Shown: positions 2,858 through 38,027 of the stretch, piece after piece
Position numbering within the stretch: the stretch's first letter is position 1
Layout of the letters: each line of letters begins with the position of its first letter
NCBI GenBank assembly: GCA_029210625.1
Contig: JARGFU010000038.1
Span: 1-41,938, forward strand
DNA: 41,938 nt
Origin: Deltaproteobacteria bacterium
GTDB lineage: Bacteria > Myxococcota > Myxococcia > SLRQ01
Direction of reading: 5' to 3'
The notes under the pieces: model-generated
Told to the model about the DNA's origin: nothing
The model's input: only the letters and a program-made list of their open reading frames with translations
The model's database searches: none
Translations under genes and position numbers: made by a program

Positions 2858-2880
2858 CGTCCTTCTCGCCGTCCGTATTC

Positions 2881-2985
2881 GTACACGTACACGTGCCCGT
2901 ACACGGCTTTTCCTCGGGGCGAGGTCGGCGCCGACGGGTTCGATGGAGAACCCGTGGACGTGTACGTGGACGTGTCCGTGGACGG
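2881..2985. repeat. Inverted hexamer-array element, copy A
   Basis: The left arm (2881-2904) is four 6-bp units, mostly GTACAC. The right arm (2954-2983) is five 6-bp units, GTGGAC, GTGTAC or GTGTCC. Right-arm units are the reverse complement of the left-arm type GT[A/C]CAC, so transcripts can fold into a long imperfect hairpin. The inner boundary is also partly symmetrical: CACGGCTTTTCC on the left and, read in reverse complement, CACGGGTTCTCC on the right. It begins 23 bases after the rsgA stop and ends 13 bases before the nuoN stop. A second copy is at 37921-38027, and both share the 18-mer GGAGAACCCGTGGACGTG. It may act as a bidirectional terminator or a dispersed repeat. Confidence 0.75.
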
Positions 2986-34403: not shown

Positions 34404-35069
34404 ATGGCAACCAAGACCATCAAGCTTCCCGAGCAGCGCCCCATGGATGCCCTCGAGCGGACCTTCTTCAGCGAGGCAGTGAAGGGCCTGAAGGTCATCG
34501 GCGGCAAGTGGGTGACCAACATGCTCTACCCCCACGACCGGAACTTCGACGTCCTGGAGCGGAAGGGACCGAGCGAGGTCGTCACCTGGGAGTACCCGGA
34601 CGAGGCGCCCCCCTATCCCAAGGGCTACCGCGGTCAGCACCGCTTGACCTACCGCGAGGACGGCCGGCCCCGCTGCGTGGCCTGCTTCATGTGCTCGACC
34701 CACTGCCCGGCCAACTGCATCACCATCGAGGCCGGTGAGCTCGAGGACGACCCCATCGAGAAGTACCCGGTGCGCTTCGAGATCGACGAGCTCAAGTGCA
34801 TCGTCTGCGGTCTCTGCGTCGAGGCCTGCCCGAAGGACGCCATCCGGATGGACACCGGCCGGCACGCCACCCCGGTCCTCGACCGCAGCGCGGCGATCAT
34901 GAGCCGCGATCAGCTCATGGCCGAGTCCAAGCCCTTCGGCTCGACCCTGCCGGTCGGCACCCCCTTCGACGTCTCCCGCGAGCACCTGCGCTACCTGCAG
35001 ATGAAGGGCGAGAAGGAGCGGGGCGCCGAGAACGAGGAAGAGCGGATCGGGCCGGATCACAGGCGGTAG
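34404..35069 (+). CDS. nuoI: NADH-quinone oxidoreductase subunit I, second set
   Basis: A 221-residue ferredoxin-type subunit with both [4Fe-4S] motifs: C91/C94/C97/C101 (CVACFMCSTHCP) and C132/C135/C138/C142 (CIVCGLCVEACP). The N-terminal 85 residues are longer than in the first NuoI. An AAGGAG site precedes the ATG. The last gene of the second set; nuoJ to nuoN do not follow. The TAG stop lies inside the stem of a strong hairpin (35058-35088) that opens the heptamer element. Confidence 0.95.
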   Translation: MATKTIKLPEQRPMDALERTFFSEAVKGLKVIGGKWVTNMLYPHDRNFDVLERKGPSEVVTWEYPDEAPPYPKGYRGQHRLTYREDGRPRCVACFMCSTHCPANCITIEAGELEDDPIEKYPVRFEIDELKCIVCGLCVEACPKDAIRMDTGRHATPVLDRSAAIMSRDQLMAESKPFGSTLPVGTPFDVSREHLRYLQMKGEKERGAENEEERIGPDHRR

Positions 35070-35232
35070 CCTTCGGCTACCGGCTGTGAGCTTCGAGCTG
35101 TGAGCTTCGAGCTTGGTCGTGCTCGCACGGCGCGCTCGAGGCGTCCGCGCCAGATGATGTGCCACGACCGGCCCGTGCGGCTGCGTGCCACCGAAGATCA
35201 CAGATCATAGCTCGCAGCTCATGGCTCGCAGC
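35064..35232. repeat. Inverted heptamer-array element
   Basis: The left part (35069-35117) is seven 7-bp units in exact register, mostly alternating GCTGTGA and GCTTCGA. The right part (35191-35232) is six contiguous 7-bp units that, read in reverse complement, are of the same family: GCTGCGA (twice), GCCATGA, GCTATGA, TCTGTGA, TCTTCGG. A GCACGG/CCGTGC pair (35125-35130 and 35173-35178) continues the symmetry inward. It begins with a hairpin of an 8-bp stem (CGGTAGCC/GGCTACCG, 35064-35082), extended after one mismatch by six more pairs. It fills the gap between nuoI and the symporter gene. It could end transcription or be a dispersed repeat. Confidence 0.75.
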
Positions 35233-35290
35233 CGGTGCCCCTCCACCGGCATCGACACGACCCCGCCCCGTCAGGCAATCTGCCGCGCGC

Positions 35291-37117
35291 ATGCCTGCAC
35301 TGGATTGGTCCATCGTCATCGCGTACCTGGTGATCGCCGTCGGCGTCGGAGCCTTCTTCGCCCGCAAGGCCTCGGAGAGCACCGCCAGCTTCTTCGCGGC
35401 CGGGCGGACCCTGCCCTGGTGGATCGCCGGCACCTCGATGGTGGCGACCACCTTCGCCGCCGACACCCCCCTGGCGGTGACCGGGATCGTGGCGGCCAAG
35501 GGCGTCGCCGGGAACTGGTTCTGGTGGAACCTGGCCATCGCCCACGTCTTCGCCGCGGTCTACCTCGCCCGTCTCTGGCGGCGCTCCGAGGTCCTCACCG
35601 ACGCCGGCATCATCGAGTCGCGCTACTCGGGCAAGCCGGCGGCGACCCTGCGGGCCTTCAAGGCCTTCTTCTTCGCCGTGCCCATCAACTGCATCACCAT
35701 GGGCTGGGTCATCCTGGCGATGCGGAAGATCCTCGGGGTCTTCGTCGACTGGGAGGCCATCCTCCCCGCCGGCTGGTTCGAGGCCGTGGTGGCCCTCTGG
35801 CCCGCGGGCAACCAGGTCGACCCGCAGACCGGCCTCTCGGTCCTCTTCGCCATGGTCCTGGCCGTGGGCTACTCGGTCCTCGGCGGCTTCCGGGGCGTCG
35901 TCATCACCGACCTCATCCAGTTCTCCCTGGCCATGATCGGCTCGGTCGCCGTGGCGGTGCTCGCGGTGCGCGAGGTCGGCGGCCTGGGCGAGCTGATGAC
36001 GAAGCTCGAGGCCACCACCGGGGACGCGGCGGGCCTGACCGCCTGGGTGCCCGCCAGCGACAGCGAGTGGATGCCCCTGCACCTCTTCGGGGTCTACGTG
36101 CTCATCCTCTGGTGGGCCCAGAAGTACTCCGACGCCGGCGGCTACCTCATGCAGCGGATGGCCGCCTGCAAGGACGCCCGCCACGCCGCCGGGGCCACCC
36201 TCTGGTTCACGGCCTGCCACTACGTCGTGCGCACCTGGCCCTGGCTGCTCGCGGGCCTCGCCGCCCTGGTCCTCTACCCCGTGGCCGAGAACGCCGGCCT
36301 CGACCGCGAGACGACCTACCCGATGTTGATCCGCGACCTGCTCCCCACCGGCCTGCTCGGCATCGCCGTGGCCTCGCTGATCGCCGCCTTCATGTCGACG
36401 ATCGACACCCACGTGAACTGGGGCGCCTCCTACCTCGTCACCGACCTCTACCAGCGCTTCCTCAAGAAGGACGCCTCCGAGCGGCACTACGTCGCCGCCT
36501 CGCGCTGGGCGGTGGTGATCATGGCGGTGATCGCCGCCATCTTCGCCCTGAACATGAACAGCATCGCCGACGCCTGGGTCTTCTTCGTGACCCTGGGCTC
36601 GGGGCTGGGCCTGGTGGCCCTGGCCCGCTGGCTCTGGTGGCGGGTGAGCGCCTGGAGCGAGCTCGCGGCCCTCGGCGCCACCCTCCTGGTGACCCTCGTC
36701 CTCTACCTGCCCGGCGTCCCCGAGCTCGGGGAGGCGGCCCGGGTGCTGGTCACCGTGAGCTTCTCCACCACGATCTGGGTGACGGTGACCTTCCTCACCC
36801 CGCCCACCGACGACGCGACCCTCGACGCTTTCTACCGGAAGGTGCGGCCCCTGGGCTTCTGGGGGCCGGTGCGGGCGCGCTGCCCGGACGTCGACCTCAC
36901 CGAGCGCAAGTGGGACGTGGCCCTGGGCTGGGCCACCGGCGTGGCCTTCGTCTACCTGCTCCTCTTCGGCTTCGGCGAGCTCTTCCTGGGCTCGACTGGC
37001 CTCGGCCTGGTCCTCCTCGTCCTGGGCGTGGTCTGCGGCTGGCTGACCTACCGGGTCATCGTCGACGGGCGCCTGCCCTTCGGCCCCCGCGCGACCTCGC
37101 CGGCCTCCTCCGGCTGA
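35291..37117 (+). CDS. Sodium/solute symporter family transporter
   Basis: A 608-residue inner-membrane transporter with about 13-15 hydrophobic segments, of the SSS (SSF) family. Recognisable parts: SFFAAGRTLPWWIAGTSMVA, VLGGFRGVVITDLIQF, and AAFMSTIDTHVNWGASYLVT followed by DLYQRFLKK, the latter including the usual Ser/Thr-rich TM8 sodium site. ATG 35291 is chosen; the frame is open upstream through the heptamer element. The substrate cannot be deduced from sequence. It follows the second complex I operon by 221 bases and ends 14 bases before a lipoprotein gene. Confidence 0.9.
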   Translation: MPALDWSIVIAYLVIAVGVGAFFARKASESTASFFAAGRTLPWWIAGTSMVATTFAADTPLAVTGIVAAKGVAGNWFWWNLAIAHVFAAVYLARLWRRSEVLTDAGIIESRYSGKPAATLRAFKAFFFAVPINCITMGWVILAMRKILGVFVDWEAILPAGWFEAVVALWPAGNQVDPQTGLSVLFAMVLAVGYSVLGGFRGVVITDLIQFSLAMIGSVAVAVLAVREVGGLGELMTKLEATTGDAAGLTAWVPASDSEWMPLHLFGVYVLILWWAQKYSDAGGYLMQRMAACKDARHAAGATLWFTACHYVVRTWPWLLAGLAALVLYPVAENAGLDRETTYPMLIRDLLPTGLLGIAVASLIAAFMSTIDTHVNWGASYLVTDLYQRFLKKDASERHYVAASRWAVVIMAVIAAIFALNMNSIADAWVFFVTLGSGLGLVALARWLWWRVSAWSELAALGATLLVTLVLYLPGVPELGEAARVLVTVSFSTTIWVTVTFLTPPTDDATLDAFYRKVRPLGFWGPVRARCPDVDLTERKWDVALGWATGVAFVYLLLFGFGELFLGSTGLGLVLLVLGVVCGWLTYRVIVDGRLPFGPRATSPASSG

Positions 37118-37899: not shown

Positions 37900-37920
37900 G
37901 CCGGCCGGTAGGCCGACCCC

Positions 37921-38027
37921 GTACACGTCCACGTCCACGTACACGTACACGGCCTTTCCGAGGGGCGATGGCTCTCAGCCTCGAGGTTTACCGGAGAACC
38001 CGTGGACGTGGACGTGTACGTGTACGG
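37921..38027. repeat. Inverted hexamer-array element, copy B
   Basis: The left arm (37921-37950) is five 6-bp units, GTACAC or GTCCAC. The right arm (38002-38025) is four units, GTGGAC or GTGTAC, each reverse complementary to the left type. 37921-37938 is a perfect inverted match of 38002-38019 (18 bp). Shares with copy A (2881-2985) the core GGAGAACCCGTGGACGTG before the right arm and GTACACGG plus a T-rich box after the left arm. It begins 21 bases after one stop codon and ends 16 bases before the other. The spacing is nearly the same as in copy A. Confidence 0.75.

What the first reader, a model, noticed from the sequence alone, without database searches (positions are those of the whole stretch)
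35058..35237. Inverted array of 7-bp units in perfect register between nuoI and the symporter gene
Seven heptamers on the left and six on the right, in opposite orientation, all variants of GCTNNGA, flank a 73-base centre that itself continues the symmetry. The layout parallels the 6-bp elements (unit arrays in inverted orientation after a stop codon) but with another period and sequence. Heptanucleotide short tandem repeats (STRR) are known in heterocystous cyanobacteria; an inverted, paired arrangement is different. Two element classes with the same architecture suggest a general mechanism that builds hairpins from short units.
Basis: seen in the sequence. Interest (0 to 1): 0.65.

Follow-up and report, generated by a model that had tools for sequence, protein, structure and literature searches.

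The report
Dispersed palindromic elements with heptamer arms
A short DNA element behind the nuoI gene is one of dozens of copies in this genome, each made of two facing rows of a 7-base unit (AGCTnnG) placed just after gene ends; such paired rows are known with other units from Xanthomonas and Geobacter, but this unit keeps reappearing in unrelated bacterial phyla and nobody knows what makes or maintains it.

Summary
The array is real. Left arm 35082-35116 (five units, AGCTNNG type), 75-bp centre, inverted right arm 35192-35233 (six units, the inner two degenerate). It lies 12 bp after the nuoI stop codon. The counts "seven and six" are generous, and this copy's centre folds no better than shuffles.

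It belongs to a family. In 2.18 Mb of the own genome, 82 arrays of three or more units were found. Of these, 62 lie in facing (+ then -) pairs within 250 bp, none in back-to-back pairs. In the 1.57 Mb sampled without regard to hits, 24 of 24 are intergenic (8% of that DNA is). Of 36 paired elements, 20 lie between convergent genes. A subset shares a homologous ~70-bp palindromic centre, giving a canonical ~126-bp element.

AGCT--G is nearly invariant. The two variable bases are D and Y, do not covary between arms, and are almost random even between copies with related centres. A second family with 6-bp units (CGTNCA) has the same plan.

One of 195 Myxococcota genomes has the dispersed family, yet unrelated phyla have their own. 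Xanthomonas and Geobacter precedents make this a new member of a known, unexplained kind. Best reading: a non-autonomous palindromic repeat whose arms are read unit by unit by an unknown factor.

The parts
35082..35116 (+). left arm: five heptamers, GGCTGTG AGCTTCG AGCTGTG AGCTTCG AGCTTGG (two copies of a 14-bp dimer)
35117..35191 (.). 75-bp centre; not homologous to the canonical ~70-bp centre of other copies; folds no better than shuffles
35192..35233 (-). right arm: six heptamers in inverse orientation, CGAAGAT CACAGAT CATAGCT CGCAGCT CATGGCT CGCAGCC; the two inner units degenerate; outer end AGCC mirrors the outer GGCT of the left arm
35058..35088 (.). 31-nt palindrome CACAGGCGGTAGCC-TTC-GGCTACCGGCTGTG that includes the nuoI stop codon and overlaps the first unit of the left arm
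34404..35069 (+). nuoI-like gene (two 4Fe-4S motifs); element starts 12 bp after its stop codon
35291..37117 (+). sodium:solute-symporter-like gene downstream, 57 bp from the element
2880..2984 (.). hexamer element (CGTNCA units): left arm 2880-2903, 51-bp centre, inverted right arm 2955-2984; same plan, other unit
37920..38026 (.). hexamer element: left arm 37920-37949, 53-bp centre, inverted right arm 38003-38026

Best explanation
It is one copy of a lineage-specific family of dispersed, palindromic intergenic elements (canonical form about 126 bp: GGCTNNG-(AGCTNNG)3-AGCAA...~60 bp palindromic centre...TTGCT-(CNNAGCT)3-CNNAGCC) that spread through this genome by being copied as non-autonomous units into the spacer just behind stop codons, as MITE-, ERIC- or REPIN-type repeats do. 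The heptamer arms are its identity: an unknown trans-acting factor (a transposase-like or DNA/RNA-binding protein) reads AGCTDYG unit by unit with a fixed polarity, so AGCT--G is kept while the D and Y positions drift; in single-stranded DNA or RNA the facing arms also fold into a long stem with mismatches recurring every seventh base or so. Shown: family, boundaries, fixed polarity, intergenic and 3'-end placement, homologous centres at several loci, conservation of 5 of 7 positions. Inferred: copying by a trans-acting machinery, recognition of the arms, a role of the hairpin. The factor is not identified.
For: 104 strict 3-unit matches against 3 in the control. Arms have a narrow length, 3-5 units in 60 of 72 arms, and a fixed outer unit beginning GGC (first base G in 30/36 and 31/36 arms, A inside). 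Inner boundary AGCAA in 25 of 72 arm ends. Eleven elements share a homologous 58-71 bp centre (nhmmer E 1e-14 to 1e-7; best pairwise BLAST E 1e-10), always with arms, and no armless centre was found in 2.18 Mb. All 24 strong arrays are intergenic. 62 arrays in + - pairs, 0 in - +. 20 of 36 elements between convergent genes against 17% of gene pairs (p 8e-8), and within tandem gene pairs -8 to 34 bp from the upstream stop. Unit positions 1-4 and 7 are 93-100% conserved (position 1 as A or G) while the two middle positions are D and Y; copies with 70-91% identical centres agree at those positions only 42-43% against 38% at random. 33 of 34 elements fold with z below -2.
Against: No target-site duplication. 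No empty site could be shown; the only same-family genome lacks synteny here. No autonomous element with such ends was seen. Four Y1_Tnp (RAYT/IS200 type) matches exist in the genome, three of them over the cut-off, and were not linked to the elements. Many copies, this one included, have centres without detectable homology to the canonical one. Constant positions are partly guaranteed by how arrays were found. Tandem growth does contribute: units two apart share their variable bases too often (40 against 22 expected in arrays of 3-6 units). In other phyla most arrays are single arms.
Confidence: 0.5

Rival explanations
1. Host-functional 3'-end element: a bidirectional transcription terminator, an mRNA 3'-end stabiliser, or a docking array for gyrase or a nucleoid protein (BIME-like), kept by selection on the host.
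For: Strong enrichment between convergent genes and hugging of stop codons; stable stem-loop in 33 of 34 elements; near-invariant AGCT--G with free D/Y positions looks like selected binding sites.
Against: No T-run and no terminator-like site at the window copy; only 6 of 212 convergent gene pairs in the unbiased contigs carry one; absent from the same-family genome and dispersed in no other of 195 genomes of the phylum, so nothing ancestral depends on it; placement away from promoters is also what an insertion tolerated only there would show; no arm covariation at the variable bases.
Confidence: 0.27
2. In-place growth: short heptamer and 14-bp repeats expand by replication slippage and become palindromic by template switching or gene conversion, with no mobile unit.
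For: Variation of unit number from 2 to 13 and excess identity of units two apart, a 14-bp step; plain one-type tandem arrays of the same unit in Halomonas, Hymenobacter and others; centres differ between many copies.
Against: Same degenerate unit at dozens of loci, narrow arm length, fixed GGCT outer and AGCAA inner boundaries and homologous centres at unlinked loci; neighbouring units are no more alike than chance (lag 1: 30 against 32); strict + - polarity; slippage should homogenise the variable bases and template switching should make the arms match, and neither is seen.
Confidence: 0.18
3. Chance or composition: GC-rich sequence with incidental short repeats.
For: Short two-copy repeats are common in any genome.
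Against: 104 against 3; period-7 runs 26.7 per Mb against 0 in a 0.4-Mb sample of a class relative; 24 of 24 intergenic, p about 5e-27.
Confidence: 0.01

Closest known systems
GGGAATC / GGGGA(C/T)T heptameric repeats of Xanthomonas and Nostoc (Rehm et al. 2015, PMC4692102)
   Same: 7-bp units, four units most common, about 180 arrays per Xanthomonas genome, 70-75 convergent close pairs, near stop codons, rare between divergent genes and in coding DNA.
   Different: Unit is G-rich and quadruplex-forming; AGCTDYG has no G-tract. No discrete element with shared centre and boundaries is described in the passages I read. In Xanthomonas most lie between co-directional genes (16% convergent), here 20 of 36 are convergent.
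Geobacter metallireducens paired 'global regulator binding sites', classes 1-3 (PMC2700814)
   Same: Tandem arrays of 3-5 units of 7-8 bp, mostly in pairs on opposite strands, multicopy, unique to one species and absent from G. sulfurreducens.
   Different: Units GTTGCTYN, TCTCCGTS[Y], MTYCTGA; spacing of pairs variable; proposed IHF/HU sites without test; some lie next to insertion sequences.
TAACTGA direct repeats of Beggiatoaceae, Cyanobacteria, Bacteroidetes (MacGregor 2015, PMC4679880)
   Same: Intergenic heptamer arrays with a scattered distribution over phyla.
   Different: Almost all direct, one inverted case; usually just upstream of start codons.
ERIC, REPIN/BIME and bacterial MITEs
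   Same: Dispersed palindromic intergenic element of about 100-130 bp, behind or between genes, lineage-specific burst.
   Different: Arms built of tandem heptamers; no target duplication; no GTAG/CGTC foot; no known RAYT or transposase link. ERIC and BIME details from my own knowledge.
STRR heptanucleotides of heterocystous cyanobacteria
   Same: Heptanucleotide tandem repeats.
   Different: Direct repeats with other units. Known to me second-hand only (Calothrix, cited in PMC4692102).

Membership tests
Paired convergent heptamer arrays (Xanthomonas type) | tandem 7-bp units, mostly about four, with near-fixed consensus | tested here: met
   3-5 units in 60 of 72 arms; consensus AGCTDYG
Paired convergent heptamer arrays (Xanthomonas type) | close pairs in convergent orientation | tested here: met
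   62 arrays in + - pairs, 0 in - +
Paired convergent heptamer arrays (Xanthomonas type) | intergenic, near stop codons, avoiding divergent gaps | tested here: met
   24/24 intergenic; tandem cases -8 to 34 bp from the stop; 3 of 36 divergent; the shortage in divergent gaps is not significant against gene-pair counts (p 0.13)
Paired convergent heptamer arrays (Xanthomonas type) | G-tract units able to form G-quadruplexes | tested here: not met
   unit AGCTDYG has no run of G; so kin in layout, not a GGGAATC member
MITE (DNA-transposon derived) | terminal inverted repeats | tested here: met
   outer GGCTNNG...CNNAGCC at both ends
MITE (DNA-transposon derived) | target-site duplication | tested here: not met
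   no direct flank repeat of 3-9 bp in 26 elements with clear ends; 2-bp matches as expected by chance
MITE (DNA-transposon derived) | autonomous partner with same ends | tested here: inconclusive
   none seen among pattern hits; only 36% of the genome was read
REP/REPIN with RAYT | GTAG or CGTC tetranucleotide at the foot of the hairpin | tested here: not met
   element ends are GGCT/AGCC
REP/REPIN with RAYT | RAYT (Y1_Tnp) gene in the genome, flanked by the repeats | tested here: inconclusive
   4 Y1_Tnp matches, 3 over the cut-off; their flanks were not checked for arrays
Intrinsic terminator | GC-rich stem followed by a T-run | tested here: not met
   none found at 34900-35500
Known Rfam RNA family | match to a covariance model | tested here: not met
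   no match up to E = 1

The most novel reading that the evidence does not exclude
The same degenerate heptamer, AGCT[AGT][CT]G, in arrays that when paired always face each other, arose as independent genome-wide bursts in members of Myxococcota, Chloroflexota, Planctomycetota, Deinococcota, Bacteroidota and Patescibacteria, because one unrecognised array-building or array-copying machinery with a fixed unit specificity moves between bacteria or recurs in them; the 6-bp elements of this genome would be a product of the same kind of machinery with another template.
Probability: 0.2. Interest if true: 0.85.

Novelty: new member of a known kind. Interest (0 to 1): 0.5.

Why it matters
Heptamer arrays are known to be over-represented in bacterial genomes without an explanation. 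This family gives handles that earlier reports lack: a discrete element with fixed boundaries and, in some copies, a comparable homologous centre; an exact split between constant and free positions; a strict polarity rule; a second family with 6-bp units in the same genome; and natural replicates in unrelated phyla. That makes 'what makes or maintains these arrays' testable by strain comparison, pull-down with array DNA, and gene-content comparison between array-rich genomes and array-free sisters.

Tried and rejected
Target-site duplications: none. Orthologous empty site: the same-family genome G001 has nuoI on a 4.9-kb contig without the symporter gene, and none of the other relatives examined keeps the neighbourhood. 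Paralogous empty sites: element flanks are not convincingly repeated elsewhere, apart from one flank that is itself another repeat. Compensatory pairing of the arms: absent. Centre-only copies: none. Horizontal transfer of the whole element: no canonical centre beside the arrays of other phyla. Rfam: no match. Terminator and promoter scan: none. A first gene caller picked antisense shadow ORFs and was discarded; the second, seeded on third-position GC, recovered the nuo operon. For hexamers the + - rule was checked loosely only (12 + - against 8 - +, with some hits in coding DNA), so polarity is not claimed for them.

Full report
WHAT IS THERE. Between nuoI (34404-35069) and a symporter gene (35291-37117), both on the + strand, the window holds two rows of heptamers facing each other. 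Left arm 35082-35116: GGCTGTG AGCTTCG AGCTGTG AGCTTCG AGCTTGG. Right arm 35192-35233: CGAAGAT CACAGAT CATAGCT CGCAGCT CATGGCT CGCAGCC. A 75-bp centre lies between. A separate 31-nt palindrome, 35058-35088, carries the nuoI stop codon and overlaps the first unit. The whole stretch folds better than every shuffle.

A GENOME-WIDE FAMILY. The strict pattern of three units occurs 104 times in the 6.11-Mb genome, against 3 for the reversed control. I read 2.18 Mb of it: five contigs wholly or in long contiguous stretches (1.57 Mb, taken without regard to hits) plus 20-kb pieces, most of them around hits. In the 1.57 Mb all 24 arrays of three or more units are intergenic, where 8% of bases are intergenic. 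Of 82 such arrays in all, 62 have a partner within 250 bp in the order + then -, none in the order - then +, one in ++, and 19 have no partner at the threshold used. A scan for periods 5 to 11 in gaps shows excess at 6 and 7 only. Period-7 runs are 26.7 per Mb here and 0 in a 0.4-Mb sample of a class relative.

ARCHITECTURE. Thirty-six paired elements were extracted. Arms have 3-5 units in 60 of 72 cases. The outermost unit begins GGC where inner ones begin AGC, so the ends are defined. The bases inside the arms are AGCAA in 25 of 72 arm ends. Gaps cluster at 68-72 bp and at 32-36 bp. Eleven elements share a homologous palindromic centre (58-71 bp), detected by nhmmer with E 1e-14 to 1e-7 and always flanked by arms. 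Others, including the window copy, have short or unrelated centres. My inference is that short centres are internal deletions of the palindrome. No target duplication was found.

HOW IT EVOLVES. Unit positions: A/G 100%, G 99%, C 100%, T 93%, then G .44 A .29 T .21 C .06, then C .55 T .37, then G 97%. The two variable bases do not complement between arms (0.363 identity after reverse complement against 0.392 expected, n = 262). Between copies whose centres are 70-91% identical, the variable bases agree only 42-43%, against 38% at random. So AGCT--G is held while the D and Y positions turn over faster than the centre. Part of the constancy follows from how arrays were found, but the arms around centre-defined hits show the same picture. 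Units two apart share their variable bases more often than chance (40 against 22 in arrays of 3-6 units), neighbours do not. Growth in 14-bp steps therefore also seems to happen.

PLACE. Of 36 elements 20 lie between convergent genes, 12 between co-directional genes, 3 between divergent genes, 1 at a contig edge. Convergent pairs are 17% of gene pairs (p 8e-8); the shortage in divergent gaps is not significant against gene-pair counts (p 0.13). In co-directional gaps the element starts -8 to 34 bp from the upstream stop codon. No terminator-like T-run is present at the window copy. Stem-loops are strong: 33 of 34 elements have z below -2.

DISTRIBUTION. Among 195 genomes of the phylum only this one has the dispersed family; three others have a single one-type array. 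The same-family genome has none. About 0.5 matches would be expected at even base use (my estimate: 257 Gb, both strands, 20 fixed bases). Some are plain one-type tandem repeats (AGCTTCG in Halomonas). Others are dispersed and mixed like ours: Roseilinea 30, Deinococcales 126, Bacteroidales 114, Planctomycetota 129, Peregrinibacteria 31, each with a control of 0-2 (organism names). Requiring a pyrimidine at position 6 keeps 25, 126, 111, 127 and 21 of them. In mixed arrays of other phyla, C is rare at position 5 (7 of 116 distinct unit types) and A/G rare at position 6 (19 of 116). Where arrays pair in these phyla with opposite orientations they again do so only as + - (19 arrays, 0 in - +), but most are single arms. 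The canonical centre is not found there.

HEXAMERS.

LITERATURE. Rehm et al. 2015 (PMC4692102) describe Xanthomonas GGGAATC arrays, mostly of four units, 70-75 convergent pairs per genome, near stop codons. The Geobacter metallireducens genome paper (PMC2700814) describes paired opposite-strand arrays of 7- and 8-bp units, some with insertion sequences near by. MacGregor 2015 (PMC4679880) describes TAACTGA arrays scattered over phyla. So the layout is known and unexplained; I found no report of the AGCTDYG unit in the library searched, which lacks most subscription papers.

VERDICT. I read the element as a non-autonomous dispersed palindromic repeat whose arms are read unit by unit by an unknown factor (0.5). 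A host 3'-end function (0.27) and growth in place (0.18) remain possible. Family, polarity and placement are shown. Mobility, recognition and the role of the hairpin are inferred.

Noticed in passing
window 2880-2984 and 37920-38026; G000 C2:244191, C5:191397, C10:65903, C12:51030: Second family with 6-bp units (CGTNCA arms, 44-53 bp centre bounded by CGG...CCG). Like the heptamer it is built on a self-complementary core (ACGT here, AGCT there) plus variable bases.
   Followed up: partly
G000 C4:22550-22717, C5:110330-110406, C5:239498 onward, C1:376895-376968: Another multicopy repeat (ends TAAACCAGAGATCATGATTCCCG) with inverted ends sits inside or directly against heptamer elements, a nested insertion that suggests such palindromes are targets.
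   Followed up: partly
G000 C5:115057-115334 and C18:109-237: Inner arrays of a third heptamer (AGCTGAN / NTCAGCT) nested between AGCTNNG arms; the two loci share a segment 84% identical over 75 bp.
   Followed up: no
L283, L293, L303 (Roseilinea): Arrays whose heptamer drifts along the run (AGCTGTG to AGTTCTG, or to AGATTNG) and then, in L283, meets inverted TCAATTC heptamers.
   Followed up: no
L312-L329: Eighteen IMG/VR viral contigs carry four-unit AGCTNYG arrays; whether they are phage or host sequence was not examined.
   Followed up: no
L131 / G211 (Deltaproteobacteria MAG NC_groundwater_1657, 72% GC): A second GC-rich deltaproteobacterial genome has 20 matches at about 12 places, with at least one + - pair (C153:26204 + / 26264 -).
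   Followed up: partly
window 35054-35069: The last codons of nuoI (D-H-R-R-stop) lie in the palindrome that overlaps the element, so the insertion may have supplied the gene's end.
   Followed up: no
PMC2700814, Geobacter class 1 sites: The Geobacter octamer GTTGCTYN resembles the inner boundary GGTTGCTC of the canonical element here.
   Followed up: no
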